From Komagataeibacter intermedius TF2 (GTDB lineage: Bacteria; Pseudomonadota; Alphaproteobacteria; Acetobacterales; Acetobacteraceae): DNA of 64,000 nt. Positions 1,927 through 58,400 of the stretch are shown piece by piece (positions within the stretch are counted from its first letter, which is position 1; each line of letters starts with the position of its first letter). Under the pieces are notes generated by a model. It was not told where the DNA came from and searched no databases. It saw only the letters and a list, made by a program, of their open reading frames with translations. Location: NCBI RefSeq assembly GCF_000964425.1, contig NZ_BANF01000012.1, positions 1-64,000 on the forward strand, read 5' to 3'. The position numbers and the translations under genes are program-made.

Positions 1927-1927
1927 A

Positions 1928-2009
1928 AGAAGTTTTTTGGTGAAGCTGTTTTTCAGAAAGCTTCAGGGAACGCCGCCTTTTTTAACAAAAGGCGGCACCC
2001 AAAAACTTT
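1928..2009. repeat. Two-hairpin intergenic element, copy A (full, inverse orientation)
   Basis: Between convergent pdxJ and tldD. The outer arm AAGTTTTTTGG (from about 1930) pairs with CCAAAAACTTT (1999-2009). Inside lie hairpin TGAAGCT (1941-1947) / AGCTTCA (1959-1965) and a perfect 10-bp hairpin GCCGCCTTTT (1972-1981) / AAAAGGCGGC (1987-1996). The T-rich stems fit a terminator working on both strands. The hairpin order is opposite to the copies at 43494, 45936 and 57367. Confidence 0.8.
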
Positions 2010-2029
2010 CGTTCTTTAATATCTCTGGC

Positions 2030-3490
2030 TCAGCCGCCCGTGCCACCCACGGTCAGGCCGGTCATTTTCAGGGTCGGCTGGCCCACGCCCACCGGCACGC
2101 CCTGCCCGGACTTGCCACAGGTGCCGATACCAGGGTCCAGCGCGGGTTCCCCGCCAATCATGGTGACCCGGGTCATGGCGTCCGCGCCATTGCCGATCAG
2201 GGTGGCGCCCCGCACTGGGGTGGTGATCTTCCCATCCTCGATCAGATAGGCCTCGGATGCGGCAAACACGAATTTGCCCGAGGTGATGTCCACCTGTCCC
2301 CCGCCGAAATTGACCGCGTACAACCCGCGCTTCGTGCTGCGGATCATGTCATCGGTCGTGGCGTCGCCACCCAGCATGATGGTGTTGGTCATGCGCGGCA
2401 TGGGCGCATGGGCATAAGACTGCCGCCGCCCGTTCCCCGTAGGGGCCACGCCCATGAGGCGGGCATTGAGACGGTCCTGCAGATAGCCGGTCAGGATGCC
2501 GTCCTCGATCATCACGGTACGTCCGGTGGGCGTGCCTTCGTCATCAATGGTCAGACTGCCCCGGCGTTCGGGCAGGGTGCCGTCATCCACCACCGTGACA
2601 CCAGGGGCCGCCACCCGCTTGCCCATAAGTCCGGCGAAGGCGGACGTACCCTTGCGGTTGAAATCCCCTTCCAGCCCGTGGCCCACTGCTTCATGCAGCA
2701 GGATGCCGGGCCAGCCGGCACCCAGCACCACTTCCATTTCCCCCGCGGGCGCAGGCCGGGCGTCAAGGTTGACCAGCGCCATGCGCAGGGCCTCGTCCAC
2801 GGCGCCCTTCCACACCTGTGGCGACAGCAGGCGGGTGTAGGAATACCGGCCACCCAGCCCGTGGCCGCCACTTTCGCGCCGACCATCATGTTCCACCACC
2901 ACCGACACGTTCATGCGCACCAGCGGGCGGATGTCGGCCATGCGCTGCCCATCGGGGCGGATGATCTGGATCGCCTGCCATTCTGCGGAAATCGACGCCA
3001 TGACCTGCACCACGCGCGGGTCACGTGCACGGGCATAGGCATCGAGTTCCGACAGCATGGCGGCCCGGGATGCAAACGCCCCTTCTTCCAGCGGATTGAT
3101 GTCGGGATACAGGCGGTGGTTGGTCGAGCGCGGACCTGCCGACAGCGTGCCCGAACGCCCGGCCCTGATCTGGCTGACGGTTTCAGCCGCGCGGCGGATG
3201 GCGCTTTCGCTTATGTCATCGGAATGGGCGAAGCCGGTTTCCGCCTCCAGCACGGCACGCAGGCCGAATCCAGATGACGTGTCGAAGGTGGCGGAACGGA
3301 TCACCCCTTCATCCAGCGAGATCCCTTCGCTTTCACGATATTCCAGGAACAGCTCGCCATCATCCATTCCCTCCAGCGCGTGCTGGACCAGGCGTTCGGC
3401 ATCGGGACGGCCAAGGCGCGCGCCCGCGCGTTCAAAGAACAGGGTATCGGTTGCAGCCAGCGGGGAAAGACCCTGAAGGGATAAGGGCAT
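2030..3490 (-). CDS. tldD: TldD/PmbA family zinc metalloprotease TldD
   Basis: Cytosolic metalloprotease of family U62, known in other bacteria for trimming modified peptides together with PmbA/TldE. The 486-residue protein carries the zinc motif HEAVGH at residues 266-271, followed by GLEGDF, which identifies TldD rather than TldE (the latter lacks the HExxxH site). The glycine-rich C-terminus around GTCGKSGQGVPVG is also typical. The gene stands alone on the minus strand, convergent with pdxJ; no tldE partner is visible in the window. The start agrees with the usual N-terminus and length. Confidence 0.95.
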   Translation of the reverse strand: MPLSLQGLSPLAATDTLFFERAGARLGRPDAERLVQHALEGMDDGELFLEYRESEGISLDEGVIRSATFDTSSGFGLRAVLEAETGFAHSDDISESAIRRAAETVSQIRAGRSGTLSAGPRSTNHRLYPDINPLEEGAFASRAAMLSELDAYARARDPRVVQVMASISAEWQAIQIIRPDGQRMADIRPLVRMNVSVVVEHDGRRESGGHGLGGRYSYTRLLSPQVWKGAVDEALRMALVNLDARPAPAGEMEVVLGAGWPGILLHEAVGHGLEGDFNRKGTSAFAGLMGKRVAAPGVTVVDDGTLPERRGSLTIDDEGTPTGRTVMIEDGILTGYLQDRLNARLMGVAPTGNGRRQSYAHAPMPRMTNTIMLGGDATTDDMIRSTKRGLYAVNFGGGQVDITSGKFVFAASEAYLIEDGKITTPVRGATLIGNGADAMTRVTMIGGEPALDPGIGTCGKSGQGVPVGVGQPTLKMTGLTVGGTGG

Positions 3491-3733
3491 GAAATGGTGA
3501 CTCCGGTTGGCGGAACAGGATTAAAAGACGGGCACGATCAGGCCGCTGCGGGCCGGAAGGGCACGTAGCATAGACGGTTTTGCCCCCTGGGGAAAAGCTG
3601 GTCTGTCTTCATGACAGGTACCATGCGTGAAAATGAACTTCCCTCCATCTGGATGGTTTCCCTTTGTGGTAGGGACGCAAGGCAGGGCATTGTGCAAAAA
3701 TCAGGTTTTCATTGTTTGGAGAAATGGCGTCTC

Positions 3734-6601
3734 GTGAAAGTTTCCCTCCTGTGCGGTTCTAGTCTGTCCCGGTCCGCGCCCCGTCAGGCCGGACTGTTGC
3801 TGGCCAGCCTTCTTTACGCGGGTACGCCCGCCCTGGCCCAGACAGCGCCAACCACATCACAGGTGGCCCCCACGCCGTCGACCGCTGCTGTCCCCTCCTC
3901 GCCGCCCGCAGGCGCGGATGGGACAACAGCCGCGCCGTCTCCCTCCGCCGCAGGTGCGACACCCGCAGCGGAAGCACCGGAGCAGACCTATTCCGTACCA
4001 ACGCCTGAACCCCTGTCGGGGAGCGGAAACATGCTGCCTGCCCCAACCAGTGCGACACCGGAAGCAGCGCCACAGGCCACACCTGCGCAGGCCCCCGCCA
4101 TGCCTGCAGCCCAGCCGCAGCCGACGGTGCCCGCCAGCAACGCGACCACACCTCCATCGCCTGCTCCATCGCCGGCTCCGGCGACCGATCAGGCCGCACC
4201 ACCGCAGCCAGCCGCCGCCCCGGCCGCCACACCCGACACGAACACCCCACCCGCCAGCACCGGCACATCCGGCCCCACCACCCCGCCTGCGCCTGCGGGC
4301 ATGCCTGCGGCGGGTGGTTCCGATCATACAGACGCTGCGCCTCCTCCGCCCGCGCCGGGTACGGAACCCGTGCAGACAGTTCACAAGGACGGCCCCGCAT
4401 CGACCGGCAGCAGCCCCGTGCCGCCAGCCGACGCCCTGATGTCGGACGCGGGCGCGCCCGCGGCACTGGTGCAGGACCTGCGCCCACCTTCGGTCGTGCT
4501 GGATGGACTGTTCCAGGCGATCGGGGAAGCCCATATCTATACCGATGCCAAGACGGCGGCCGACGCCATTCCCGACGAGGCCCCGGCCGACCTGCTGGCG
4601 GAATACAATGTCGCCAAGCAGCGGCCCGATTTTTCCCTGAAGGACTTCGTTGCGCGGCATTTCACCCTGCCCGAGCGCAAGACGGTGTCCTACCAGCGCA
4701 CGCCGGATGAAAACGTGCGCGACTACATCAACGGCATGTGGGAAGTTCTCAGCCGCCCGCCCGACATGCAGGTGGCGTATTCATCGCAGCTTCCCCTGCC
4801 CTATACCTATGTCGTGCCGGGCGGGCGTTTCAGTGAACTGTATTACTGGGACAGCTATTTCACGATGATCGGGCTGTACGAAAACCAGAAGATCGACCTC
4901 ATGCGCGACATGGTGCGCGACATGGCGTCGATGATCGACCGGTACGGCCATATCCCCAATGGCAGCCGGACCTACTACCTCAGCCGGTCGCAGGTTCCGT
5001 TCTTCTCGCTAATGGTTGACCTGCTGGCCATGCATGACGGGCAGGTGGCCTACACCACCTTCCTGCCCGAACTGCAGGCGGAATATGATTACTGGATGGA
5101 CGGGCAGGATTCCGTTCCGCCCGGCGGCGCGTACCGGCATGTTGTGCGCCTGCCTGATGGCACGCTGATGAACCGCCACTGGGATGATCTGGATACCCCG
5201 CGTGACGAAAGCTACCCGCAGGACATCGCCACGGCCGCGCAGTCGGGACGCCCGAAGGGGGAGGTTTATCGCGACCTGCGCGCCGGTTCGGAAACGGGGT
5301 GGGATTTCTCGTCCCGCTGGCTGGCGGACGGGCATACCCTGTCCACCATTCACACCACCGACCTGCTGACGGTCGAACTGAACTGCATGATCCCGCATCT
5401 GGAACAGACGCTGGCCCATGCCTATGACCTGAAGGGCAACAAGGACGCAGCCGCCCGTTACAACCGTCTGGCGCAGGAGCGTATCGACGCGGTGCAGCGT
5501 ATCCTGTGGGATGAACGCCGGGCCGCCTTCATCGATTACGACTGGAAGAAGGGGGAATCGACCTCCATCCTGTCGGGTGCGGCCGTTGTGCCCCTGTTCA
5601 TGCAGATGGCAACACCGGAACAGGCCAAAGCCGTATCCGAGACGGTGCGTAAAAACCTGCTCAAGGTCGGCGGGCTGATCGCCACCGAACGCAGCGGCAG
5701 CGGGCAGCAGTGGGATTCACCCAACGGGTGGGCGCCCCTGCAATGGATGGCGGTCAAGGGCCTGAACCAGTACGGCTATGACGAACTGGCCAGTGACATT
5801 GCGGCGCGGTGGATGGGCCGCGTGATCGGCACGTATGAAAAGTCCGGCGTGCTGCTGGAAAAATATGACGTGGTCAATCCGTTCATCAGCCCCAAGGGCG
5901 GCAAGGGCGGCGGCGAATACCCGATGCAGATCGGGTTTGGCTGGACCAACGGCACGCTGCTTGGCCTTATGAACCGCTATCCGCAGAACACGCGTGTCGT
6001 GCTTGACCGCAACCCGGCGGCGGACCAGCCATCACCCCAGCCCCTGCCGCCCATGAACCCCTATGGCGTGCAGAGCGATAATGATGCGCTGAGCCGCTAC
6101 AGCCAGCCCACAGTCACCCTGACCCCGCGCCCGGTTGCCCCGACCCCGATCCTGCCGCAGATGTCGACCGTGGGGGCCAGCGCACCGTCATCGGCCACGC
6201 AGATTCCGCCTGCCGCCCCTGCGGTGAATGCGCCATCCGGCACACCCCCTGCAGCCCCGGCCACAGCGGCCAGTACGGAGCAGCATGTAGACACGCCGTC
6301 ACCTGCGACAGACGGGCAGCCAGCGCAATCCACACAGGCCGCGCAGCCGCCAGAAGCGGATCATGCCCCGGCCACCGAAACACCACCGGCCCCGGCATCC
6401 GCTGAAACGAAGCCGCCGGAAACACCAGTTCCCCCCGCAACAGGCGAAACACAGGGCGGGAATGAGACGCACGATAGCGGGACACCCGCAACGAAGGATG
6501 CGCCCGCGATAGCCCAACCCGCACAGCCGACCGCGACAGATACGCATGCCGGGACCACCGACAAAACGGCGACAGGCGAAAATCAGTCCGCGACCCACTA
6601 G
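3734..6601 (+). CDS. treA: Exported trehalase with Pro/Ala-rich arms
   Basis: Glycoside hydrolase family 37 enzyme splitting alpha,alpha-trehalose into glucose, probably in the periplasm. Both family signatures are visible: PGGRFSELYYWDSYF near residue 360 and QQWDSPNGWAPLQW near residue 660. I prefer the GTG at 3734, because it begins directly with a signal peptide (VKVSLLCGSS..., hydrophobic LLLASLLYAG, cleavage after ALA before Q). In-frame ATGs at 3611 and 3623 would put about 40 non-hydrophobic residues in front. The mature protein starts with about 220 residues rich in Pro, Ala and Thr and ends with about 190 more after the catalytic domain, so the 955 residues far exceed the roughly 550 of E. 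coli TreA. It stands alone, with an AT-rich 240-bp upstream gap. Confidence 0.92.
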   Translation: MKVSLLCGSSLSRSAPRQAGLLLASLLYAGTPALAQTAPTTSQVAPTPSTAAVPSSPPAGADGTTAAPSPSAAGATPAAEAPEQTYSVPTPEPLSGSGNMLPAPTSATPEAAPQATPAQAPAMPAAQPQPTVPASNATTPPSPAPSPAPATDQAAPPQPAAAPAATPDTNTPPASTGTSGPTTPPAPAGMPAAGGSDHTDAAPPPPAPGTEPVQTVHKDGPASTGSSPVPPADALMSDAGAPAALVQDLRPPSVVLDGLFQAIGEAHIYTDAKTAADAIPDEAPADLLAEYNVAKQRPDFSLKDFVARHFTLPERKTVSYQRTPDENVRDYINGMWEVLSRPPDMQVAYSSQLPLPYTYVVPGGRFSELYYWDSYFTMIGLYENQKIDLMRDMVRDMASMIDRYGHIPNGSRTYYLSRSQVPFFSLMVDLLAMHDGQVAYTTFLPELQAEYDYWMDGQDSVPPGGAYRHVVRLPDGTLMNRHWDDLDTPRDESYPQDIATAAQSGRPKGEVYRDLRAGSETGWDFSSRWLADGHTLSTIHTTDLLTVELNCMIPHLEQTLAHAYDLKGNKDAAARYNRLAQERIDAVQRILWDERRAAFIDYDWKKGESTSILSGAAVVPLFMQMATPEQAKAVSETVRKNLLKVGGLIATERSGSGQQWDSPNGWAPLQWMAVKGLNQYGYDELASDIAARWMGRVIGTYEKSGVLLEKYDVVNPFISPKGGKGGGEYPMQIGFGWTNGTLLGLMNRYPQNTRVVLDRNPAADQPSPQPLPPMNPYGVQSDNDALSRYSQPTVTLTPRPVAPTPILPQMSTVGASAPSSATQIPPAAPAVNAPSGTPPAAPATAASTEQHVDTPSPATDGQPAQSTQAAQPPEADHAPATETPPAPASAETKPPETPVPPATGETQGGNETHDSGTPATKDAPAIAQPAQPTATDTHAGTTDKTATGENQSATH

Positions 6602-6709
6602 GCTATCCAGCCGGGAAGCCGCCATGTCAGCGCGGCGCCCGGTTCTTCCTGCCTTCAGGTCCGGGCGTTCATGGCTGCTGCCGTTACATCACCGGGACAG
6701 CGGGAGCGT

Positions 6710-6736
6710 CATCCTGTCCACCCGGCAGACAGGATG
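6710..6736. terminator. Hairpin between convergent trehalase and GT22 genes
   Basis: Perfect 9-bp inverted repeat CATCCTGTC (6710-6718) / GACAGGATG (6728-6736) with a 9-nt loop, in the gap between two genes reading towards each other. There is no clean T-run directly after the stem on either strand, so its role as terminator rests on position and stem strength. Confidence 0.4.
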
Positions 6737-6756
6737 GATAAAAAACCTGCTGTCCT

Positions 6757-8208
6757 TTATCTGTTCATCCTGAGCACGGTTCGGGAAAACTGGGTATAGT
6801 CCGGTGTTCCGTCACATGTTGAATTGACGTGGTACAGACAGACATCATTTTTACAGATTATCTTCTGTGAATTCTTATTGAAAATATTATAGCCATCGCC
6901 ACCAATAACGTAATTGTATTTCGTGGGTGGGACATCGCCCTCTGTGGTATCAGTCAACAGATAGAGCGCGCGGTCGGGTTTCATATGGCTGTATCCACCT
7001 GACAGCCACCAGCCGCCATCCGGCCCAACCAGGGCAAGACCGCACATATCTGGCATTTTATTTGCCTTGGCCTGCAAATACATGATCCGATTGTTCTTAT
7101 GTATTCCGTCGGCATAGGACGACGCCAGGATACCCAGTTCAACAATGGCCAGACTCCCGACAAGTATCGGCAGAGGTATCGCACGACCTGACCGGGCCAT
7201 TTTTGAAAGAGAAAACGATGCGACAAGGACAAATATCGGGATGGCTGCGTAGATGAATGATATTTCCTTATGCGATATCATCGAATGATATAACAATATA
7301 AATAGCGGGATGGACGCCATATACCTGTGTTCTGGCATACCTTTCCAGAACAGCCAGCACAGCGGTAGAAATGCCGCTCCCCACAAATGAAACAGACCGA
7401 ACAGGTAAAAGACGGCAGGCATGCTGCCATAACGCAGGGCAACGCCTTCATTCACGTTCAGATAGAAGTTTTTATATATGGACTGAAAAGGATGACCCAG
7501 CGTCTGGTAATCAACCAGTCCCAGCATACACACGGGAAGGAGCAGCCCTGCAGCAACCGGCACCACGGACCGCGCGCCCGTCAGCCACACGACAATCATG
7601 ACGTCAAGACACAGCGCCGGGGCCAGATGAAACCGGAACGCGAACGACAGGCCGGTCAGCAGTCCAAATACAAACAGTATGGGGAGGCTGATATGTGCTT
7701 TCCCCTGTTTTTTCATTGCTATGTAAATGATCAGGACACTCAGCGCCATTATATTGCCGCTGACGGTCTCACCCAACGTACGGAATGAATCATTGACCAT
7801 ATCCGGCCACAAGGCCGCTGACATACCACATATCCATGCGCCGCTTATGCCCTCCGTCACCCAGCCGGCATAAACAAAGCCAGCAACAAGACCCAACGAG
7901 CAGAGCGCAAAGACAATCCTGACAAAAGTGGCGGAATACCCCAACCCCAGCGCGTGCCCGGCCCTGAGGATCTGCGCAATCATATCCGGCAGCAGCCATG
8001 ACCGGATTCCGGCCTGCCATTCCCATGTCAGGACGCCATGGCCCGTCAGCTTATAATAGGCCGGCTCCATATACTGAAAGAATTCATCCGCCCGTAACGG
8101 GCCGGGAGACAGGAATATCATCAGGATCCGGACGACCAGCGCCACGAATACACAGACCGCCAGTGGCAGGAGCACACCATCGCGCAGTTTGTCGGGATAC
8201 GGTTTCAT
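6757..8208 (-). CDS. GT22 (Alg9/PIG-B-like) GT-C mannosyltransferase, copy 1
   Basis: Multi-membrane protein of 483 residues. The first luminal/periplasmic loop has RADEFFQYMEP, then GHGVLTWEW and IRSWLLP, and a later segment reads HKEISFIYAAIP. These match the hallmarks of glycosyltransferase family 22 (acidic catalytic loop H/R-x-DE-x-FQ-x-x-EP, TWEW, HKE), enzymes that transfer mannose from a polyprenyl-phosphate-mannose donor. About ten hydrophobic segments follow, with a hydrophilic tail. I chose ATG 8208, which has AGGA 8 bases upstream; an in-frame GTG at 8262 would add 18 residues. Its nearest relative is the adjacent copy at 8303-9778 (same motifs, same strand). The acceptor is unknown. 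Base composition is lower in GC than the flanking core genes. Confidence 0.78.
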   Translation of the reverse strand: MKPYPDKLRDGVLLPLAVCVFVALVVRILMIFLSPGPLRADEFFQYMEPAYYKLTGHGVLTWEWQAGIRSWLLPDMIAQILRAGHALGLGYSATFVRIVFALCSLGLVAGFVYAGWVTEGISGAWICGMSAALWPDMVNDSFRTLGETVSGNIMALSVLIIYIAMKKQGKAHISLPILFVFGLLTGLSFAFRFHLAPALCLDVMIVVWLTGARSVVPVAAGLLLPVCMLGLVDYQTLGHPFQSIYKNFYLNVNEGVALRYGSMPAVFYLFGLFHLWGAAFLPLCWLFWKGMPEHRYMASIPLFILLYHSMISHKEISFIYAAIPIFVLVASFSLSKMARSGRAIPLPILVGSLAIVELGILASSYADGIHKNNRIMYLQAKANKMPDMCGLALVGPDGGWWLSGGYSHMKPDRALYLLTDTTEGDVPPTKYNYVIGGDGYNIFNKNSQKIICKNDVCLYHVNSTCDGTPDYTQFSRTVLRMNR

Positions 8209-8302
8209 ACTGTTTTTCCTGCCACAACCGATCAAAAACGATAGAGAAAACCGTCTGTCCACATTGGGTTATGGAACAGGCCTGTTTTCAGGTCCGTCCA
8301 TA

Positions 8303-36847: not shown

Positions 36848-36877
36848 TTTTTTGAAAAAAGCTTCACTAAAAACTTT
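36848..36877. repeat. Two-hairpin intergenic element, copy B (half)
   Basis: Contains only the right half: TTTTTTGAAAAAAGCTTCAC followed by the outer arm TAAAAACTTTT. The letters TGCCGTC just before it look like the remains of the other hairpin, fused after an internal deletion. It lies downstream of qor, between convergent qor and rho. Confidence 0.6.
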
Positions 36878-36890
36878 TGTCTTTCAAAAC

Positions 36891-38255: not shown

Positions 38256-38649
38256 GCAGGATATGCCTATAAGTGGGCAGTTCACGAAAGGAAAGGAAAA
38301 GCCGGCAATCAGTTTGAGAAGGCGCGTCGATGACGGACCCTGACCATATTCGGACGAAACGGTTTGATGCAGCTTAACGGATAGGTGGGAATCCCGAGCA
38401 CGCCATGAAATGGCACCCTTCGGGACAGCGGAACCATATGCCTTTAATCACCCGACGTCAAGCATCCGCGCCCGTTCATGCCATATCACCCTGTGGGCAT
38501 GATAATGTTTATACTGTCGTCATGGCTGTAACGCCGCGGCACGACACAATATTCACCTGCCCGCTGCGACGTTTCGATCCGGTTCCAGCAGCCTTTACCC
38601 TTCGGGCGCCGGGCAACGTTCCTGATTGCTTCAGGATAAACCGTTGATA
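38256..38649. other. Leader/promoter region upstream of rho, no gene
   Basis: About 390 bp with no convincing reading frame on either strand. By position it should contain the rho promoter and a long 5' leader. I see no intrinsic terminator or known riboswitch in it. Confidence 0.5.
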
Positions 38650-38717
38650 AAAAACCAGCGGCACTGCCTGGATGCCGCATTTCATGAAGCTTTGTGAAAA
38701 AAGGCTTCTCCAGAAAC
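38650..38717. repeat. Two-hairpin intergenic element, copy G (degenerate)
   Basis: AAAAACCA, then hairpin GCGGCA (38658-38663) / TGCCGC (38673-38678), then TGAAGCTTT (38685-38693) / AAAGGCTTC with a bulged G, then outer arm CCAGAAAC (38710-38717). Order and spacing follow copies C and E. It lies 3' of the porin gene, which ends at 38772 on the minus strand. Confidence 0.6.
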
Positions 38718-38771
38718 ATCCTTGTGGCCTGCAGGATGGTTCACACGGGAAACGTATTGCATGCCCTGCGC

Positions 38772-41413: not shown

Positions 41414-42643
41414 TTGAGCGCAACAGACACACAGGCAGGCGCCAACAGCCTGCGCAGCGGGCCGGACGGTCGCGGCCGTTTCGGCATTTTCGGCGGCCGT
41501 TTCGTCGCTGAAACCCTGATGCCGCTCCTGCTGGAGCTGGATGGCGCATACAGGGCGGCACAGGCGGACCCCGAATTCCGGCGTGAACTGGATTATTACC
41601 TCAAGGACTATGTCGGCCGTCCCAGCCCGCTGTGGTTCGCACGCCGCATGACCGAAGAACTTGGCGGCGCCAAGATCTACATGAAGCGCGAGGAACTGAA
41701 CCACACCGGTTCGCACAAGCTCAACAACGTCATGGGACAGATCCTGCTGGCCCGCCGCATGGGCCGTACCCGCATCGTGGCCGAAACGGGCGCGGGCCAG
41801 CATGGTGTCGCCACCGCGACCGTGTGCGCACTGTTTGGCATGAAATGCGCGATCTACATGGGCGCCACCGATGTCGAGCGCCAGAAGCCCAACGTGTTCC
41901 GCATGCGGCTGCTGGGCGCCGAGGTCGTGCCCGTCACGGCGGGCGCGGGCACGCTGAAGGACGCCATGAACGAAGCCATGCGCGACTGGGTGACCAACGT
42001 GCACGACACCTACTTCCTTGTCGGCACGGTGGCGGGGCCGCATCCCTATCCGCAGATGGTGCGTGATTTCCAGTCCATCATCGGCGTGGAGACAAAGGAA
42101 CAGATCGTTGCCGCCGAAGGCCGCCTGCCCGATACGATCGTGGCGGCGATCGGTGGCGGGTCGAACGCCATGGGCATCTTCCATCCCTTCCTTGATGATC
42201 CCGAAGTCAGGCTGATCGGTGTCGAGGCCGCGGGCTGCGGTCTGGACAGCGGACGCACCGCCGCCTCCATCGAGCGCGGCAAGCCCGGCGTGCTGCACGG
42301 CAACCGTACCTACCTGCTGCAGGACGCGGACGGACAGATCACTGAAGCCCATTCCATCAGCGCGGGCCTCGACTACCCCGGCGTCGGCCCCGAACATTCA
42401 TGGCTCAGTGACATCGGGCGCGCCGAATATGTGGGCGCGACCGACCAGGAGGCACTGGACGCCTTCCAGTTGTGCACCCGCACGGAAGGCATCATTCCCG
42501 CGCTGGAAAGCGCCCATGCCATTGCCTACGCCACGAAGATCGCGCCCGACATGGGCAAGGACCAGATCATCGTGGTCAATATTTCCGGCCGGGGGGACAA
42601 GGACATCTTCACCGTCGCCGAACACCTGGGAGTGAAACTGTGA
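41414..42643 (+). CDS. trpB: Tryptophan synthase beta chain
   Basis: PLP enzyme joining indole and serine. [19 protein letters not shown] is the N-terminal signature, and [12 protein letters not shown] carries the PLP Lys. [11 protein letters not shown] and [10 protein letters not shown] (phosphate loop) follow. I start at TTG 41414, which has GGAG 8 bases upstream and gives 409 residues. The open frame reaches back to 41282, but the extra 44 residues are not TrpB-like. trpA overlaps by 4 bp. trpF, often directly upstream in alphaproteobacteria, is absent here; corA lies there instead. Confidence 0.97.
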
Positions 42644-43476
42644 GCCGCATCGCCCGCCGCTTCGCCACCCTGCGCCAGCAGGGACGTGGCGCCCTGATCC
42701 CCTATGTCGAAGCCTGCGATCCCGATTACGACACGTCTCTGGCCATCCTGCGCGGCATGCCTGCCGCCGGTGCGGACCTGATCGAGGTCGGCGTCCCCTT
42801 CTCCGACCCGTCAGCCGATGGCCCGACCATCCAGAAGGCAGCCCTGCGCGGCCTGAAGGGCGGTTCGACCATGAAGCGCGTGCTGGAAATGGTCGCAGCC
42901 TTCCGCGAAGGCGATGACGGGACCCCGATCATCCTGATGGGCTACACCAATCCCATCACGGCCTATGGTCCCGAACGCTTCTGCGTGGATGCGAAAGCAG
43001 CGGGCGTGGACGGGCTGATCGTCGTCGACATGCCGCCGGAGGAAGCCGACCTGCTGGCAGGCCCCGCCGCTACCGCCGGGCTGGACATCATCCGCCTTGT
43101 CGCCCCCACCACGCCCGATGACCGCCTGCCGGTCGTCTTCAATGGTGCATCGGGTTTTGTCTATTATGTCAGCATCACCGGGGTGACAGGCACGCGCACC
43201 GCCAGCACCGACGAACTGGCCCACGCCCTGCCCCGCCTGCGCCGGGCAACCGACCTGCCCATCGCCATCGGCTTTGGCATCCGCACGCCGGAACTTGCCG
43301 CAAACGCCGTAAGCGTGGCCGATGCTGCCGTCGTGGCGTCCGCCCTGCTCAACACGCTCGAGGCCACGCTTGATGCGGATGGAAAAGCGACAGCCAGAAC
43401 CGTGCCTGCGGTTCTGGAACAGCTGCGCGGACTGGCCAATGCCGTGCATGCTGTAAGCAAACCTGTCTCAGAATAG
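42640..43476 (+). CDS. trpA: Tryptophan synthase alpha chain
   Basis: Splits indole-3-glycerol phosphate and channels indole to TrpB. The start is GTG 42640, overlapping the trpB stop (GTGA). Family blocks are [34 protein letters not shown] (with the catalytic-region Asp/Glu), LMGYTNPI and [12 protein letters not shown]. The 278-residue length is normal. A two-hairpin element follows before accD. Confidence 0.97.
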
Positions 43477-43493
43477 TACATTGATAAGAAAGA

Positions 43494-43571
43494 AAAGTTT
43501 CTGAATGTCGCCTTTTTTCCAAAAGGCGGCGTTTTCTGAAGCTTTTTGAAAAAAGCTTCACCAGAAACTTT
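43494..43571. repeat. Two-hairpin intergenic element, copy C (full)
   Basis: Best-preserved copy. Outer arms AAAGTTTCTG (43494-43503) / CAGAAACTTT (43562-43571) match perfectly over 10 bp. Hairpin 1 is GTCGCCTTTT (43507-43516) / AAAAGGCGGC (43521-43530), with one T-G wobble. Hairpin 2 is TGAAGCTTTTT (43537-43547) / AAAAAGCTTCA (43550-43560). It lies between trpA and accD, both on the plus strand. Confidence 0.85.
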
Positions 43572-43693
43572 CTTTTGATTTACGGAGCGTTTCGCGGATG
43601 GTTTTCCCAAACGCCCCCTGCAATGACAATCTGGCCCAATCGTTCATCTGCCTGTATGGAACAGGCCTCCAGAAAGCTTAAGGGAGAGGCAAC

Positions 43694-45908: not shown

Positions 45909-45935
45909 CAGGTAATATCCGTATCGTTTCCGGGC

Positions 45936-45996
45936 GCCGCCTTTTTCAGCAAAGGCGACATTCCCTGACGCTATCTGTAAAAGGCTTCACCAAAAA
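45936..45996. repeat. Two-hairpin intergenic element, copy D (degenerate)
   Basis: GCCGCCTTT (45936-45944) / AAAGGCGAC (45951-45959), with one mismatch, then a decayed second hairpin ending AAAAGGCTTCACCAAAAAA. Same orientation as copy C. It lies between convergent folC and the sugar-porter gene and runs into a regular terminator. Confidence 0.6.
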
Positions 45997-46020
45997 ACCC
46001 GCCCTATTCACAGGGCGGGT
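45992..46020 (-). terminator. Terminator of the sugar-porter gene
   Basis: Stem ACCCGCCCT (45997-46005) / AGGGCGGGT (46012-46020) with a 6-nt loop. On the minus strand it is followed by TTTTTT (45997-45992). Confidence 0.85.
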
Positions 46021-48606: not shown

Positions 48607-48671
48607 TGCTGGTGCTCCTGTATCCGGTTGCCGGCATGGCCCCGGTGCGCCCGCATGCCTCCGGGCCGGGG

Positions 48672-50573: not shown

Positions 50574-50595
50574 TTTATTATCACACATAAAGTAT

Positions 50596-52032: not shown

Positions 52033-52096
52033 CCCCGCCCCGGGAACCCGGCCGTTACGGATGAATTATAAGAAGAAGGAAGGAAAAGGCACCCGC

Positions 52097-53575
52097 ATGA
52101 ATAACCAGACCCCACCAGCACACCCCACGCCAGAGGCAACGGAACCGTTGCCCGACATGTCCCAGATCGAGATTTCCCCCAACGCACGCAAGACCTTATG
52201 GCTCGCAGCCATCGTGGCCGCAATCTGCGGCGGCCTCTATGGTTACGATACCGGGATCGTCTCGGGGGCGCTGCTGCTGATCACGCATGATTTCCACCTC
52301 AGCAGCTTCTATCAGGAAATGGTGGCCTCCGCCATTCTGGCTGGCGCCGTGATGGGATCACTGCTGACCGGGTGGATGTCCGAACATTATGGGCGCCGCA
52401 AGTCCATCATGATCGTGACGGCCATTTTCGTGCTGGGCGCGCTGGCCTGCGCCTTCTCGCCCGATGTCTATACGCTGATCATTTCGCGCGTGTTCCTGGG
52501 GCTGGCGGTTGGCGGGTCCACGCAGGTGGTGCCCATGTACATCTCGGAACTGGCGCCAGCGCACAAGCGCGGGCACATGGTCACGATGTTCAACATCGCC
52601 ATCGGCATCGGCATCTTCGCCGCCAACATCATCGGCTTTGCCGCGCGTGATGCATGGGGCTGGCGGCCAATGGTGGCGATCGCCGCCATTCCTGCCGCCG
52701 TCGTGTTCATTTCCATGTTCTTCCTGCCCAAAAGCCCGCGCTGGGCGGCGGAACATGAAAGCCTTGATTCCGCGCTGGAGCAGCTGCAGCGCATCCGTAC
52801 CTCCGAACGCGACATCCGCCGCGAAATGCGCCGCATCCACGCCAATGCGAACGAGGAAACCGACCCGCGCGACATCGGCTGGCGCGGCCTGCGCCAGCCA
52901 TGGGTGCGCCCGGCCCTTGTGGCCGCCCTTGGCGTCGCCTTCTTCACGCAGGCGGGCGGGCTGGAAATGATGATCTATTACGCGCCCACCTTCCTGTCGG
53001 ATGCGGGGTTTGGCAGCTCATCCGCGCTTATGGCCAGCATCGGCATCTCGATCATCTATCTGGTCATGACCGTGCTGGGGTCGAACATTGTCGACCGCAT
53101 CGGTCGCCGCAGGCTTGTGCTGGTCATGGGACCGGGCAGCGTGCTCAGCCTGATCGGCCTTGGCATCATGTTCCTGCTGCACCCGCAGCCGGGCAGCATG
53201 GGCAGCTGGCTGATCATTGCCTTCATGCTGCTGTTCATGGTGTTCAACGCCGGTGGCATCCAGGTCGTGGGCTGGCTGCTGGGGGCGGAAATGTTCCCGC
53301 TGTCCATGCGTGGCAACGCCACCAGCCTGCATTCAGCCATGCTGTGGGGCAGCGACCTGCTGGTGACCAGCACGGCGCTGACGCTGGTGACCAAGATCAC
53401 GCTGGGCGGCACGATGTGGTTCTACGCCGGGGTAAACCTGCTGTCGGTCCTGTTCGTGTATTTCATGGTGCCTGAAACGCGCGGGGCCTCGCTGGAAGAC
53501 ATCGAGGACGCACTGCGCGAAGGCCGCTTCCGCCCGACACGCGGCAATACCGCCATTGTCGAGGAAGAAGAATAA
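52097..53575 (+). CDS. Sugar porter family MFS transporter
   Basis: A 492-residue 12-helix sugar/proton symporter. GGLYGYDTGIVSGALLLI in helix 1, SEHYGRRKSIMIV, DRIGRRRLVLVMG and PETRGASLEDIEDALREG are the sugar-porter signatures. FTQAGGLEMMIYYAPTF replaces the usual QQ-x-x-GIN segment in helix 7, which may alter specificity. ATG 52097 has AAGGAAGGAAAAGG upstream; the frame is open to 52013 across the selO stop. A terminator follows. Confidence 0.9.
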   Translation: MNNQTPPAHPTPEATEPLPDMSQIEISPNARKTLWLAAIVAAICGGLYGYDTGIVSGALLLITHDFHLSSFYQEMVASAILAGAVMGSLLTGWMSEHYGRRKSIMIVTAIFVLGALACAFSPDVYTLIISRVFLGLAVGGSTQVVPMYISELAPAHKRGHMVTMFNIAIGIGIFAANIIGFAARDAWGWRPMVAIAAIPAAVVFISMFFLPKSPRWAAEHESLDSALEQLQRIRTSERDIRREMRRIHANANEETDPRDIGWRGLRQPWVRPALVAALGVAFFTQAGGLEMMIYYAPTFLSDAGFGSSSALMASIGISIIYLVMTVLGSNIVDRIGRRRLVLVMGPGSVLSLIGLGIMFLLHPQPGSMGSWLIIAFMLLFMVFNAGGIQVVGWLLGAEMFPLSMRGNATSLHSAMLWGSDLLVTSTALTLVTKITLGGTMWFYAGVNLLSVLFVYFMVPETRGASLEDIEDALREGRFRPTRGNTAIVEEEE

Positions 53576-53610
53576 CATCCGGCACTACCGGATACAGGCG
53601 GCACCATTAA

Positions 53611-53643
53611 AAAACGGGCGTCCCGGCCAGGGGCGCCCGTTTT
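53611..53643. terminator. Bidirectional terminator between MFS and S9 peptidase genes
   Basis: AAAACGGGCG (53611-53620) / CGCCCGTTTT (53634-53643) around a 13-nt loop that can itself pair partly. A-run on one side, T-run on the other, between convergent genes. Confidence 0.85.
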
Positions 53644-53651
53644 GCGTTTTC

Positions 53652-55649
53652 TTATGCGTGGGTCGGTTGCGGGTCAGCAATCAGGTCCACGTGCAGGGCA
53701 GGGGAGACGGGCAACCTGAGCACCTGCTGGTAGAATGCCAGTTCCAGTTCCCATGCCTGCCGTATGGTGGATTCCTGCCGGAAGCCATGGCCTTCGCCCT
53801 CAAACTCGTACAATGCGCAGGGCACCCCGCGCCCGCGCAGGGCGGCGACCATGGACCGTGCCTGCGCGGGTGGCACCACCCGGTCATCCAGTCCCTGCAG
53901 AAACAGGACAGGCACCCGGATATCCGCCACCTGTGTTATGGGCGAACGGGCCAGATAGGTTGCTTCATCCGCAGGGTAGGGACCAACCAGCGTATCCAGA
54001 TAACGTGATTCAAACTTGTGCGTATCCTGTGCCAGCGCCCGCAGGTCGGTCACGCCATACAGGCTGGTGCCAGCCGCGAACAGGCTGGAACGCGCCAGCG
54101 CCAGCAGTACCGTCAGGCCACCCGCGCTGCTGCCCCGTGTGACGATGCGGGCCGGGTCAACCTGTCCGGTCGTGGCAAGGTACTGGCAGGCGGCAATGCA
54201 GTCATCCACGTCCACCACGCCCCACTGCCGTTCCAGCCGCTGCCGGTAGGCGCGGCCAAAACCGGTTGAACCGCCATAATTGACATCAACCACGGCAAAC
54301 CCCCGGCTGGTCCACCACTGCACCTTGAATGAAAAGGCGGGATTGGCGCGGCCGGTCGGCCCCCCATGGGCGACAACGACCAGCGGTGGCCTTTCGCCAT
54401 CCGGCCCGCGATACCGGGCATTGGCGGGGGCATAGAAAAAGGCGTGTCCGGTGCCCTTGCCATCGGGCAGGGGAAAATGGATCGGGGCAGGGCGGGCGAT
54501 GTCGGCTGCCGCCAGCGGCAGTTCCGTTGCCCGCCGCAGCACCTGTGGCGCATGCCCCGGCAGGCCGCGCACAACCGCCGCCGCGTTATCAGATGGCGCA
54601 TCCAGCCACGCAAACCCGTCCCCTTCCACCGGAACGGGACAGCCGGACGGGTGACCAAGATCCAGCGGCGTCACCATGCCATCACGGATGGAAACCATCC
54701 GGGTATCGCCATCGTTGATGACCATGGCGAGGATGCTGCCATCCGCCAGCGGCACGTAACTGCGCAGGCCGAACACCCAGTGGGGCTGGCCGATTTCGGC
54801 TTCCATGGGGGCAAGCGCCACGGGGGGGGAGGACGTCGTATCAAACCGGTAAAGATTCCACCATCCGCTGCGATCAGACAGCGCCAGCAGCCGCCCCGCC
54901 GTATCCCAGCAGGGTTCAATGACCGATTCCATCTGTCCATCATCGCCAGCGGCAGTCCACGGGGCGGCGAGGCGCGGCGGATCATCGCCTTCCTGCAGCA
55001 GGGTGGCGACACGCAGGCGCGTCGCATCCCACGGCATGGCGGGATGGTCCCATTCGATCCATGCCATATACCGTCCATCGGGCGAGGGACGGGGAGAAGA
55101 CAGGAAATCCGGCCCCATGACCAGCGGCGTCCCCCCGTTGAACGCGGGATCCACCGTGGCCGTGCAGTCCAGCACCACGATGGCGGCGGCAGGTTCCTCG
55201 TCTTCCGCGCGGTGGTCTTCACGCACGCAGAACACGAAGCGTCCGTCGGGGCTGAATGTCAGGTCGGCATACCACAGCCCCGCCCCGGTCGAGAGGCAGC
55301 GCGGCGTCTCCCCCTCCACCAGCCACAGGCTGCCGTCGCGGCGGTTGCTGAACGCAATGACACCCTGACACACCGCATAGGCACCGCCGCCATATTCATG
55401 CACCCGGGTACCGACATCAAACGGGGCGGGGGTCACGTCATCCACCTGTCCCGCACGGGCACGGACCAGTACGCGCCGTCCCCCTTCTGCCGGGCGGCCT
55501 TCGATCCAGTAAATGTCACGCCCGTCCACCCGCACATCCGACAGGGAAACCGTCTTCCCCGCCACAAGTGCTGCGCTGACGGGTGAGGGCCATGTGCCAT
55601 AGGGGCGCACCTCGGTGCCTGTCGTGGCGCTGGTGCTGGACTGGGTCAT
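53652..55649 (-). CDS. S9 family peptidase (prolyl oligopeptidase / acylaminoacyl peptidase type)
   Basis: A 665-residue serine peptidase: an N-terminal beta-propeller (repeated DGRFVFCVRED, SPDGRYMAWIEWD segments, residues about 30-390) and a C-terminal alpha/beta-hydrolase domain. Catalytic Ser is in RGSSAGGLTVLL, Asp in LQGLDDRVVPP and His in GEGHGFRQ. No signal peptide, so probably cytosolic. ATG 55649 has AGGAG 7 bases upstream. The gene is head-to-head with the DedA gene. Confidence 0.92.
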   Translation of the reverse strand: MTQSSTSATTGTEVRPYGTWPSPVSAALVAGKTVSLSDVRVDGRDIYWIEGRPAEGGRRVLVRARAGQVDDVTPAPFDVGTRVHEYGGGAYAVCQGVIAFSNRRDGSLWLVEGETPRCLSTGAGLWYADLTFSPDGRFVFCVREDHRAEDEEPAAAIVVLDCTATVDPAFNGGTPLVMGPDFLSSPRPSPDGRYMAWIEWDHPAMPWDATRLRVATLLQEGDDPPRLAAPWTAAGDDGQMESVIEPCWDTAGRLLALSDRSGWWNLYRFDTTSSPPVALAPMEAEIGQPHWVFGLRSYVPLADGSILAMVINDGDTRMVSIRDGMVTPLDLGHPSGCPVPVEGDGFAWLDAPSDNAAAVVRGLPGHAPQVLRRATELPLAAADIARPAPIHFPLPDGKGTGHAFFYAPANARYRGPDGERPPLVVVAHGGPTGRANPAFSFKVQWWTSRGFAVVDVNYGGSTGFGRAYRQRLERQWGVVDVDDCIAACQYLATTGQVDPARIVTRGSSAGGLTVLLALARSSLFAAGTSLYGVTDLRALAQDTHKFESRYLDTLVGPYPADEATYLARSPITQVADIRVPVLFLQGLDDRVVPPAQARSMVAALRGRGVPCALYEFEGEGHGFRQESTIRQAWELELAFYQQVLRLPVSPALHVDLIADPQPTHA

Positions 55650-55746
55650 GTTCTTGCTCCTGCCATTTGTGCGTGACAATGGTATCGGAATTGCACACAC
55701 CGCGTTTTACGCTCTGTCGTCCATACCCTACATACTCTTTTTATTT

Positions 55747-56415
55747 GTGACAGGTAGTCCGCTGCTTCAGCATCTTGAACATCTTTTCCAGCATTACGGC
55801 TATGGCGTGATTGGCGTCATTGTCATGCTGGAAAGCATGGGTATTCCCCTGCCGGCGGAAACCCTGGTCATTTCGGCCTCGATCTACTGCGCCACCACCC
55901 ACCGGCTGGATATTGCATGGGTGGCGACGGCCGCGATCGTGGGCGCGATTACAGGGGACAACCTTGGCTACCTGATCGGACGCTGGCTTGGGTATCCGCT
56001 GCTGGAACGCCATGGGCCCAAGGTGGGACTGACACTGCGACGCCTCCAGACCGGCCGCTATCTGTTCGGACGGTATGGGGGGATCATCGTCTGCGCGGGA
56101 CGGTTCCTTGCCATCCTGCGTGTATTCGTGGCCCTTCTGGCGGGGGCCAACCATATGCCGTGGTCCAGGTTTCTGGTGTACAATGCGCTGGGCGGCACGA
56201 TATGGGCCGGTGGATATGCCTATGCCGCCTATTATCTGGGCCACAGGATCACACGCATTTCCGGCCCGATGGGCATGGCCGTCGCTACGGTAGGCGGAAT
56301 TGTGATGGTATGCGCCATCATGTTCCTGCGTCGGCATGAAGCACGCCTGACGGCGCAGGTGGAAGCCGCAGCCCTGAAGGAAATGCACCAACCCAAGGAA
56401 CAGGCGGACACATGA
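55747..56415 (+). CDS. DedA family inner-membrane protein
   Basis: Polytopic membrane protein with the DedA/VTT core: MLESMGIPLPAETLVI (E-x-x-G-x-P-x-P-x-E), ITGDNLGYLIGRWLG and RFLAILRVFVALLAG (R-F-x-x-x-R). Relatives help recycle undecaprenyl phosphate or other lipids. Start uncertain: GTG 55747 gives a normal 222-residue protein but has no Shine-Dalgarno, while ATG 55648 and 55615 overlap the divergent peptidase gene. A possible promoter (TTTACG, 17 bp, TACATA) ends just before 55747, which would suit a leaderless start. It overlaps the SDR gene by 4 bp. Confidence 0.85.
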   Translation: MTGSPLLQHLEHLFQHYGYGVIGVIVMLESMGIPLPAETLVISASIYCATTHRLDIAWVATAAIVGAITGDNLGYLIGRWLGYPLLERHGPKVGLTLRRLQTGRYLFGRYGGIIVCAGRFLAILRVFVALLAGANHMPWSRFLVYNALGGTIWAGGYAYAAYYLGHRITRISGPMGMAVATVGGIVMVCAIMFLRRHEARLTAQVEAAALKEMHQPKEQADT

Positions 56416-57353
56416 CCAGACACTGGACCATTCGGCAGGCCCCGCGCATGGACGGACGCCTTGCCCTTGTCACCGGGGCCACTGGTGGCCTTGGCTACCA
56501 GACTGCCCTTGGCCTGGCGTCACGCGGGGCCCGGGTCATCCTGACGGGGCGCAATCCGGACAAGGGGCTGGCCGCGCTGACGCGCCTGCAGCTTGACGCG
56601 CCGGGGGCAGATGCCACGTTCCGGCTGCTTGATGTCTCTAGCCTTGAATCAATCGCGACCTTTGCCCATGCACTGGCGGGGGAAACCGACAGGCTGGACG
56701 TTCTGGTCAACAACGCGGGCGTCATGGGCACGCCGCACCGCATGGAAACGCGCGACGGCTTCGAGATGCAGTTTGGCACCAATTTCCTTGGTCCCTTTGC
56801 GCTGACAGCCCGCCTGCGTCCCCTGTTATGCGCAGTCCCGCACGGTGGCCGGGTGGTGACGGTGGCAAGTCTGGCCGCCCTGACGGGGCAGATCGTATTT
56901 GACGACCTGCAGGCCCGTCGCCGTTATGCCCCTTTCCGCGCCTACCGGCAAAGCAAGCTGGCGGACCTGATCCTGGCGCTGGAACTGGACCGTCAGACCC
57001 GCACGCACGGCTGGCCGCTACATTCCATTGCCGCCCATCCCGGCTGGGCCAGAACCGATATCGCGACCAGCAGGCTGAATACGGAACAGGGGCTGCAGGA
57101 ACGACTGACCCGTATCGGCGCGGTCTGGGCGTTCCGCCTTATGGGGCAGTCCGCAGCCCACGGCGCGCTGCCCATCGAATTCGCCGCCATGGCGCCAGAA
57201 GCCCGCGATGGTGGCTATTACGGCCCGAGCGGACAGGGCGAACGCCGGGGACATGTCACCGACGCCTTCGTTCCGGCCGCCGCACGCGACCTGACCATTG
57301 CGCGACGGCTGTGGCAGGTGGCGGAGCGGCTGACCGGCACATCTCTGTCATAG
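56412..57353 (+). CDS. Short-chain dehydrogenase/reductase (retinol-dehydrogenase-like)
   Basis: A 313-residue NAD(P)-dependent SDR. LVTGATGGLGYQTALGLA (TGxxxGxG), VLVNNAGVMG, and the catalytic YRQSK (YxxxK) with VVTVASLAAL supplying Ser are all present. The overall pattern fits the RDH/WWOX-like oxidoreductases; substrate unknown. Its ATG overlaps the dedA stop (ATGA). A full two-hairpin element follows. Confidence 0.9.
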   Translation: MTRHWTIRQAPRMDGRLALVTGATGGLGYQTALGLASRGARVILTGRNPDKGLAALTRLQLDAPGADATFRLLDVSSLESIATFAHALAGETDRLDVLVNNAGVMGTPHRMETRDGFEMQFGTNFLGPFALTARLRPLLCAVPHGGRVVTVASLAALTGQIVFDDLQARRRYAPFRAYRQSKLADLILALELDRQTRTHGWPLHSIAAHPGWARTDIATSRLNTEQGLQERLTRIGAVWAFRLMGQSAAHGALPIEFAAMAPEARDGGYYGPSGQGERRGHVTDAFVPAAARDLTIARRLWQVAERLTGTSLS

Positions 57354-57366
57354 ATGGAAAAGAATA

Positions 57367-57443
57367 AAAGTCTTTTGGATGCCACCTTTAAAAAAAGGCG
57401 GCGTTCCCTGAAGCTTTTTGAAAAAAGCTTCACCAAAAACTTT
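57367..57443. repeat. Two-hairpin intergenic element, copy E (full)
   Basis: Outer arms AAAGTCTTTTGG (57367-57378) / CCAAAAACTTT (57433-57443), near-perfect. Hairpin 1 is GCCACCTTT (57381-57389) / AAAGGCGGC (57394-57402), with one mismatch. Hairpin 2 is TGAAGCTTTTT (57409-57419) / AAAAAGCTTCA (57422-57432). It lies between convergent SDR and trmB genes. Confidence 0.85.
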
Positions 57444-57473
57444 TTCCTTATTGGCTGATTGCTGAATAGCCGC

Positions 57474-58178
57474 CTAGCGGCGGACGAAGGTCCAGTACAA
57501 TGGCTGGCGGCCTGCTTTCAGCGCCTTGGCTTCGTAGCGGGTAGGAGGCCAGCCTTCGGGACGAAGCGTTGCGGGCGGTGCCGTTTCAAACAGATCCTGC
57601 GCGCCCATCACTTCCTCAACCCATGCCTGATAGGTCGGGTCATCACTGGCCACACGCCAGACCGCACCCGGCCGCAGGATACGGGCGGCCTGCTTCACCG
57701 TTTCGGGGTGGACAAAACGCCGCTTTGCATGGCGCGACTTGGGCCACGGATCAGGAAACATGAGAAACAGGCGGTCAATGGACGCATCGGGCAGGCCGCG
57801 CAGCAGGATGCGGGCATCTTCATCCCATATCCGCAACATGTCGGGGACAGGGGCAGTTGCCTCCCCATCGTCTGGCACGACACGGGACAGCAGGGAACAC
57901 AGCCCGTTTTCAAAGACTTCGCACGCGATATAACCGACATCCGGATGGGCGGCATGCTGGGCCAGGGAATGTTCACCGCCGCCAAAACCGACTTCCAGCC
58001 ATATCTGCGCCGGCCTGTGGCCGAAACCGGCCGCCGGGTCCGCAATGGCGGATTCCGGGAACCGCATCCGGGGCAATGTCTGGTCCAGAAGCCGCTGCTG
58101 GCGGGGACGCAGCGGATGGCCGCGCTGACGCCCGTAAAGCCGGTCAGGAGATGCCTTTACATCCACAGAGGCCGTCAT
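57474..58178 (-). CDS. trmB: tRNA (guanosine(46)-N7)-methyltransferase TrmB
   Basis: A 234-residue SAM methyltransferase that adds m7G46 in the tRNA variable loop. LEVGFGGGEHSL is the SAM motif, and FLMFPDPWPKSRHAKRRFVHP is the TrmB signature. GRQRGHPLRPRQ near the N-terminus is also typical. I start at ATG 58178; 52 open codons upstream look non-coding. It lies between the repeat elements E and F. Confidence 0.95.
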   Translation of the reverse strand: MTASVDVKASPDRLYGRQRGHPLRPRQQRLLDQTLPRMRFPESAIADPAAGFGHRPAQIWLEVGFGGGEHSLAQHAAHPDVGYIACEVFENGLCSLLSRVVPDDGEATAPVPDMLRIWDEDARILLRGLPDASIDRLFLMFPDPWPKSRHAKRRFVHPETVKQAARILRPGAVWRVASDDPTYQAWVEEVMGAQDLFETAPPATLRPEGWPPTRYEAKALKAGRQPLYWTFVRR

Positions 58179-58361
58179 ATGTCCGAAAATCCTGCTCCTG
58201 CTGCCGCGTGGTGCACGCCGCACGGCATGATTACCCCATCGGGGCGGGGGAAAACACAGCGGGGGCCGCCATGACCGGCTTTTGCAAGCAGCCATGACAA
58301 GCCCCCGATGGGCTCCGGCCCGTATATAGGCCAAAGCAGGCGGAAGAATGAACCCGCCAGA

Positions 58362-58400
58362 ACGCCGCCTTTCCGAAAAAAGGCGGCGTCCAGAAACTTT
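58362..58400. repeat. Two-hairpin intergenic element, copy F (half)
   Basis: 11-bp hairpin ACGCCGCCTTT (58362-58372) / AAAGGCGGCGT (58379-58389) followed by the outer arm CCAGAAACTTT (58390-58400). The TGAAGCTT hairpin and the other arm are missing. Orientation as in copy A. It sits directly 3' of metK on the minus strand. Confidence 0.7.

What the first reader, a model, noticed from the sequence alone, without database searches (positions are those of the whole stretch)
1928..58400. Dispersed two-hairpin intergenic element with outer inverted repeats, seven copies in 57 kb
Copies at 1928-2009, 36848-36877, 38650-38717, 43494-43571, 45936-45996, 57367-57443 and 58362-58400. A full copy is an outer arm AAAGTTTYTGG, a GCCGCC/GGCGGC hairpin, a GTTCCC-like spacer, a TGAAGCTTTTT/AAAAAGCTTCA hairpin, and a closing arm CCARAAACTTT. 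Both orientations occur. All copies lie directly 3' of a gene, four of them between convergent genes. This looks like a small non-autonomous mobile element adopted as a terminator, or a REP/BIME-like family. The structure is seen directly; mobility is inferred.
Basis: partly seen in the sequence, partly recalled or inferred. Interest (0 to 1): 0.7.

Follow-up and report, generated by a model that had tools for sequence, protein, structure and literature searches.

The report
Jumping DNA carrying a transcription terminator
The repeats are worn-down copies of a tiny transposable element of acetic acid bacteria that carries a folded stop signal for transcription in its middle; the stop signal appears to outlast the rest of the element at the ends of genes, so a selfish DNA family may be supplying the genus with gene-end signals.

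Summary
All seven copies are there and belong to a family with at least 143 places in this genome, found in 19 of 19 genomes of its genus (Komagataeibacter). In intact copies the 85-bp three-way-junction core lies inside a MITE of about 162 bp with 15-bp terminal inverted repeats (GAGACTGTTTGAAAA). Of 26 distinct intact sites 22 have a 3-bp target duplication, 21 of them TNA, as in the IS1031 group of IS5 (recalled). Sister plasmids hold the natural empty site. The window copy after trpA matches MITE positions 5-156, and four relatives lack it at that site. Older copies keep the core while the ends are near random. None lies between divergent genes (0 of 30 loci; 0 of 37 own-genome loci), and U-rich tracts flank both sides. 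Best reading: an IS5-type MITE with a built-in bidirectional terminator whose core hosts retain. Movement is shown by sequence; termination is inferred. REP/RAYT membership fails. Look-alike cores with other hairpin stems occur in other Acetobacteraceae; homology unproven.

The parts
1910..2025 (-). MITE relic between pdxJ and tldD (convergent); core 1927-2013; matches MITE positions 23-135
36849..36884 (+). remnant (MITE positions 88-125) between a quinone reductase gene and rho (convergent); a fuller copy stands here in K. oboediens, swingsii, FXV3, xylinus, diospyri
38625..38725 (+). degenerate copy (MITE positions 4-121, 23 bits) 3' of a porin-like gene, upstream of rho (tandem)
43463..43612 (+). 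most complete relic in the window (MITE positions 5-156 of 162, 93 bits); core 43490-43574; lies after trpA, before accD (tandem)
45926..45997 (+). core remnant (MITE positions 42-113) between folC and a sugar transporter gene (convergent); orientation differs between species
57349..57449 (+). MITE relic (positions 21-122), core 57363-57446, between an SDR gene and a methyltransferase gene (convergent); core inverted between conserved flanks in K. diospyri
58358..58414 (-). partial core (MITE positions 25-81), 3' of metK (tandem)
42640..43476 (+). trpA; its last codons in this genome lie over the relic's left end

Best explanation
The copies are decayed members of a MITE family of Komagataeibacter (and of Novacetimonas plasmids). 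The intact unit is about 162 bp: 15-bp terminal inverted repeats GAGACTGTTTGAAAA, a core in which an outer stem (AAAAGTTTYTGG...CCARAAACTTYTT) closes two hairpins (GCCGCC-T6..A6-GGCGGC and TGAAGC-T5..A6-GCTTCA), and U-rich stretches outside the outer stem on both strands. It has no room for a transposase and is most likely moved in trans by an IS5-family (IS1031-group) transposase that duplicates TNA. SHOWN by sequence: the unit, its ends, the target duplications, filled and empty sites, loss of the ends in older copies, position 3' of genes. INFERRED: the core is a bidirectional intrinsic terminator, so insertions at gene ends do little harm or help, while those between promoters are removed; after insertion the ends drift to randomness and the core is kept. 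INFERRED: the exact partner transposase.
For: Terminal repeats: GAGACTGTTTGAAAAC (<=1 mismatch) occurs in 13 of 13 genus genomes searched (4 hits here, 68 in K. swingsii), 0 of 7 others, reversed-pattern control 0 in all 20; a core was found beside the repeat in 24 of 26 loci. Target duplications: 22 of 26 distinct sites have 3 identical bp, 21 of them TNA; in a wider set with ends projected from a profile 27 of 45. Empty site: on conjugative plasmids the end of a dotG/icmE gene is uninterrupted in 6 of 7 records and carries the MITE in N. hansenii p1 and in genus genome G006 (L230), where TAA, the stop codon, is the duplication; two empties were read (K. oboediens pKOB2, flanks 98.9 and 94.1 percent identical to L230; K. 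europaeus), four judged from adjacent flank matches. Window copy: the insert after trpA aligns with the MITE, absent in four relatives. Position: 15 convergent, 15 tandem, 1 edge of 31 loci in ten species, 0 of 30 divergent, p 6e-5 against share of intergenic bases; own genome 0 of 37 loci, p 6e-6; nearest gene end a median 13 bp away (list). U-rich tracts: after the right arm A is 0.00 at +1 to +4 in 77 copies; before the left arm T is 0-0.04 and A 0.78-0.88. Retention: core identity 0.85 against 0.60 and 0.58 for the ends (shuffled 0.56) in 30 own copies. IS5 transposases of NF033580 type match in 19 of 19 genus genomes; one has the end GAGCCTGTTTGAAAAAT.
Against: No RNA data. The window's copies are not called terminators by the tool's consensus scan, apart from one hit touching 38650 and others outside the cores (1910-2025 was not scanned). 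My own scan finds an ordinary terminator outside the core in 16 of 37 convergent regions with a copy and in 15 of 34 without, so the copy is not simply a replacement. Depletion between divergent genes already holds for intact copies (2 of 39, p 4e-4) and any insertion into promoters would be selected against. Insertion exactly at stop codons is not enriched (8 of 45 against 14 percent expected, p 0.30). No IS with exactly the MITE's 15-mer at both ends was found in 30 plus 28 loci. Old copies were found by their core, which biases towards conserved cores.
Confidence: 0.75

Rival explanations
1. The core is the primary, older element: a family-wide, self-copying terminator-like repeat of Acetobacteraceae that a Komagataeibacter MITE captured, so that most core-only copies never had the GAGACTG ends.
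For: Cores with the same outer arm (AAAAGTTTTTTG) and two T6/A6 hairpins but different hairpin stems occur in other family genomes: 17 outside the genus, in 11 genera, among 150 searched at E<=1e-6; examples are near-identical within a genome and show no GAGACTG repeat beside the core. Copies fall mostly into intact ones or ones with ends near random.
Against: The trpA copy and the copy at 38625 keep recognisable MITE ends (positions 5-156 and 4-121); six of 41 copies in other species keep the left end at 75 percent or more. A structure-heavy model may match unrelated AT-rich double hairpins in those genomes.
Confidence: 0.2
2. REP/BIME or REPIN-like family moved by a RAYT.
For: Short, palindromic, extragenic, over 100 copies.
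Against: PF01797 found in 0 of 19 genus genomes while 5 of 14 control genomes ring, and in 1 of 10 other family genomes with such cores; IS-type ends and 3-bp duplications. A paper passage states that CGTC-tagged repeats are missing in Acetobacteraceae (PMC3733652).
Confidence: 0.02
3. Ordinary intrinsic terminators that look alike through vertical descent and selection, without movement.
For: Position and U-rich flanks; some loci share the element in six to eight of ten species.
Against: Intact copies with terminal repeats, target duplications and empty sites; 19 of 31 loci lack the element in at least one assessable species, though some of these are deletion remnants.
Confidence: 0.03

Closest known systems
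IS5-family (IS1031-group) MITEs
   Same: short, no transposase gene, GAG-starting terminal repeats, 3-bp TNA duplications; IS5 transposases in the same genomes
   Different: carries a conserved three-way-junction core with U-rich flanks on both strands that appears to be kept after the ends decay; exact partner IS not found. The group name and its TNA rule are recalled
SPRITE of Streptococcus pneumoniae (PMC3049150, passages seen)
   Same: a dispersed repeat family described as Rho-independent-terminator-like
   Different: SPRITE is an 18-bp duplex with a U-rich tract; here two hairpins inside a closing stem, U-rich on both sides, within a transposon with target duplications
BrickBuilt MITE of Porphyromonas gingivalis (PMC4596501, passages seen) and QMITE of Coxiella (PMC5896051, passages seen)
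   Same: intergenic MITEs; terminators predicted around BrickBuilt copies; one QMITE supplies a gene's 3' end
   Different: there the terminators lie beside the element or are shared by chance; here the terminator-like structure is the element's core
REP/BIME/REPIN with RAYT
   Same: small extragenic palindromes in high copy
   Different: no RAYT in the genus; IS-type ends and duplications

Membership tests
MITE | short (under about 300 bp), no transposase gene | tested here: met
   150-164 bp in 28 rows, 26 distinct sites
MITE | terminal inverted repeats | tested here: met
   15-bp GAGACTGTTTGAAAA at both ends, 0-3 mismatches in sum
MITE | target-site duplication | tested here: met
   22 of 26 distinct sites have 3 identical bp
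MITE | insertion into natural empty sites | tested here: met
   dotG end on sister plasmids; trpA
MITE | autonomous relative with the same ends | tested here: inconclusive
   nearest IS5 end differs by 1 of 15 bases on one side and 2 on the other, and shows no clear duplication (L349); no exact match in the loci examined
IS5 family, IS1031 group | 3-bp TNA duplication (rule recalled) | tested here: met
   21 of 26 distinct sites; IS1031-like elements in the genus show TAA, TCA, TTA, TAA at four loci
IS5 family, IS1031 group | moved by an IS5 transposase | not testable with these tools
   transposases of NF033580 type are present in the genus; activity on these ends needs an experiment
REP/BIME/REPIN | RAYT (Y1_Tnp) in the genome | tested here: not met
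   0 of 19 genus genomes; 5 of 14 controls positive
Intrinsic terminator | stem followed by a U-rich tract | tested here: met
   77 copies, both strands; the stem next to the tract is A/U-rich and the tract is interrupted, and consensus scans do not call most window copies
Intrinsic terminator | located 3' of genes | tested here: met
   31 loci and 37 own-genome loci
Intrinsic terminator | stops transcription | not testable with these tools
   needs Term-seq or reporters
Any Rfam family | match at the curated threshold | tested here: not met
   window: two tRNAs only; four loci with copies: at the curated threshold two cobalamin riboswitches, not over the element

The most novel reading that the evidence does not exclude
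Acetobacteraceae harbour an ancient class of self-spreading bidirectional terminators: a three-way-junction core with a conserved outer arm and hairpin stems that are swapped as a set from genus to genus and homogenised within each genome. In Komagataeibacter the core rides on an IS5-type MITE; elsewhere it spreads without those ends by a means not yet known. Genomes take their gene-end signals from this pool.
Probability: 0.25. Interest if true: 0.78.

Novelty: new variant of a known kind. Interest (0 to 1): 0.6.

Why it matters
It gives a traceable case of transposons becoming standard gene-end signals: intact, decaying and core-only copies can be compared at the same loci across about ten species. 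It offers a simple reason why a MITE can reach high copy number: it carries its own terminator and so is tolerated where genes end. Komagataeibacter is the main bacterial cellulose producer, and the cores are candidate ready-made two-way terminators. It would also correct annotation, since in the annotated plasmid records looked at no feature was named for these copies.

Tried and rejected
RAYT as mover: PF01797 absent from the genus. BLAST of 150-bp flanks of 36 own copies found no shared flank (one weak hit); I first took the arms as the ends, which was wrong, because BLAST misses the decayed ends; plasmid copies showed the longer unit. Insertion aimed at stop codons: eight of 45 sites, not above expectation. 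Element as replacement of ordinary terminators: not supported as a rule (16 of 37 against 15 of 34), though at metK two species without the copy have another hairpin there. Which core orientation is ancestral at the SDR locus: end comparison inconclusive. Concerted evolution inside the genus: orthologous pairs 0.82, paralogues in one genome 0.80, others 0.78 identity, no clear signal. Separate IS ends among repeat hits: L227, L251, L298, L302 turned out to be broken MITEs. A direct IS630 link suggested by a MITE beside an IS630 gene on N. hansenii p1: the IS630 lies between the dotG stop and the MITE, and a scan found no MITE-type end at the IS630's far side. A solo-arm (uptake-signal) reading: the exact arm occurs only 33 times in the genome against 7 for the reversed pattern. 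Literature: ten searches showed no description of this element in the listings; passages were seen in seven papers, no paper was read whole, and most subscription journals are not held.

Full report
What was checked. The seven places were read and searched with a covariance model made from 27 copies of the same genome. Three are full copies, three are weaker and one (36848) is a remnant that the model sees only marginally and the later MITE profile sees at E 5e-5. The genome holds at least 143 places (150 of 1453 candidates were scored). In 18 further genomes of the genus the counts are 55 to 113, where 113 is the number scored. Outside the genus, in the same call, one genome has 12 matches, two have one each and 18 have none.

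Where it comes from. A plasmid search with one copy hit only Komagataeibacter and Novacetimonas. The nearest named relative at one gene is K. oboediens (99 percent protein identity; 96 percent DNA over 1.4 kb in G007). So the window is taken as Komagataeibacter. Names for G handles are my inference from equal contig lengths.

The core. An outer stem AAAAGTTTYTGG/CCARAAACTTYTT closes two hairpins. In 27 copies, cells changed on both sides (21 against 10.3) and the covariation score exceed shuffles, while two other measures do not; column 13-82 is C-G in ten copies and U-A in ten. Outside the stem both strands run U-rich: in 77 of 79 copies that could be anchored, the four bases after the right arm are never A, and the four before the left arm are A in 78 to 88 percent. 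Most single-copy folds show the three-way junction, two of six window folds do not (45934-45997, and the minus-strand reading of 1927-2010), and consensus terminator scans miss most copies.

Position. I called genes with a simple codon-bias caller; where family searches were made they agree. In 820 kb from ten Komagataeibacter genomes, 73 copies lie 37 convergent, 35 tandem, none divergent, none inside genes, one at an edge. Orthologues inflate this, so by locus it is 15, 15, 0, 0 and 1 of 31. In this genome, 37 of the at least 143 copies had flanks at hand: 25 convergent, 12 tandem, none divergent or intragenic, nearest gene end a median 13 bp away. Divergent regions make up 28 percent of intergenic bases; p is 6e-5 for 0 of 30 and 6e-6 for 0 of 37.

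The mobile unit. Two plasmid copies showed inverted repeats outside the core. The pattern GAGACTGTTTGAAAAC is present in 13 of 13 genus genomes searched, 68 times in K. swingsii but only four times here, in none of seven others, and the reversed pattern is in none. In 24 of 26 loci the core stands beside it. Aligned intact copies are 150-164 bp, mostly 160-163. Of 28 rows, 26 are distinct sites; 22 have identical 3-bp flanks, 21 of them TNA and one ATA; four have none or two bases only. A wider profile-based set of 45 has 27 TNA duplications; some ends there are projected and uncertain. Its context is 19 convergent, 18 tandem, 2 divergent, 6 edge, so depletion between divergent genes already holds for intact copies (p 4e-4). 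Eight sit exactly on a stop codon, which is no more than expected, since most stop codons are TNA (p 0.30).

Filled and empty sites. On conjugative plasmids, both flanks of the dotG/icmE end are held by seven records; in six they are adjacent, in N. hansenii p1 a MITE and an IS630 lie between. The filled site without IS630 is in G006 (L230): AAGAAGTAA, MITE, TAAGG; the empty site of K. oboediens pKOB2 reads AAGAAGTAAG, with flanks 98.9 percent (461 bp) and 94.1 percent (544 bp) identical. In the window, the region after trpA in this genome, K. xylinus and K. swingsii carries an insert that aligns with the MITE, while oboediens, rhaeticus, saccharivorans and G013 lack it; its profile match covers positions 5-156 of 162. 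At the SDR|methyltransferase locus K. diospyri has the core inverted between flanks that match the others; of ten loci with a copy in two or more species, four show opposite orientations, and independent insertion is not excluded for the others. Over 31 loci, 19 lack the copy in at least one species that could be judged; some of these are remnants or deletions, for example two in this genome, and K. saccharivorans keeps a piece like a MITE end at the rho locus.

What is kept. In 30 own copies chosen for a good core, identity to the MITE consensus is 0.85 in the core, 0.60 and 0.58 in the ends, against 0.55-0.56 for shuffled sequence; eight swingsii and 41 other copies behave alike, except that six of the 41 keep the left end and one the right end at 75 percent or more. 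Selection of copies by core exaggerates this, but equal decay would leave far more of the ends.

The mover. PF01797 is absent from 19 of 19 genus genomes. IS5-type transposases match in 19 of 19; the query protein is an IS5 family transposase by NCBIfam. Ends seen: GAGGCCGTTTGAGAAT with TAA duplication; GAGCCTGTTTGAAAAAT (one mismatch to the MITE, other end two); GAGCCTGATCCGAAAG with TAA, TCA, TTA, TAA, which I recall as IS1031-like. An IS with the exact ends was not found in the loci looked at, and multi-copy ISs collapse in draft assemblies.

Look-alikes elsewhere. In the family search, 17 of 147 genomes outside the genus match at E<=1e-6, in 11 genera. One of these genera (g89) has copies as good as the genus's own. 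In others the outer arm AAAAGTTTTTTG and the T6/A6 hairpins are kept while the hairpin stems differ (CTCCC and GTTC; GTTC and CTTC; GCCGCC and GTGGGGGC), and copies in one genome can be identical over about 70 bases. Eight genomes re-searched give 8 to 138 matches at E<=1e-4, both strands counted. Their context, 25 of 30 loci judged with a caller trained on Komagataeibacter, is 20 tandem, 2 convergent, 2 divergent, 1 intragenic, so the strict 3' pattern is not shown there. A Y1 transposase is in 1 of 10 such genomes. Homology of these cores to the MITE core is a proposal.

Judgement. MITE origin is close to certain for the intact copies and for the trpA copy, likely for the rest. Terminator function is likely but untested. 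It is a new variant of a known kind: a MITE whose core is a two-way terminator that appears to outlive the transposon.

Noticed in passing
window 43463-43612: The MITE relic lies between trpA and accD in the order trpB-trpA-accD-folC; it may put a terminator inside a conserved gene cluster, and trpA's last codons here lie over the relic's left end.
   Followed up: partly
L376 480-1648 (N. hansenii plasmid p1): An IS630 gene stands between the dotG stop codon and a MITE that in G006 directly follows that stop codon: a nested insertion.
   Followed up: partly
L224 3085-3325 and 3453-3698 (N. hansenii plasmid p1): Two cobalamin riboswitch matches on opposite strands about 450 and 800 bp from a MITE.
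   Followed up: no
metK 3' end, L184-L187 and L176-L179 stretches: Species without the copy after metK (K. saccharivorans, G013) have an unrelated G+C-rich hairpin there; K. xylinus has a shrunken copy that keeps the outer arms.
   Followed up: partly
G174, L375: The only Y1/RAYT-type transposase gene met in genomes with such cores.
   Followed up: no
K. saccharivorans stretch L184-L187: No model match in 80 kb syntenic with the window, while K. swingsii, rhaeticus and xylinus have 10 to 12 each; copy number varies strongly between species.
   Followed up: no
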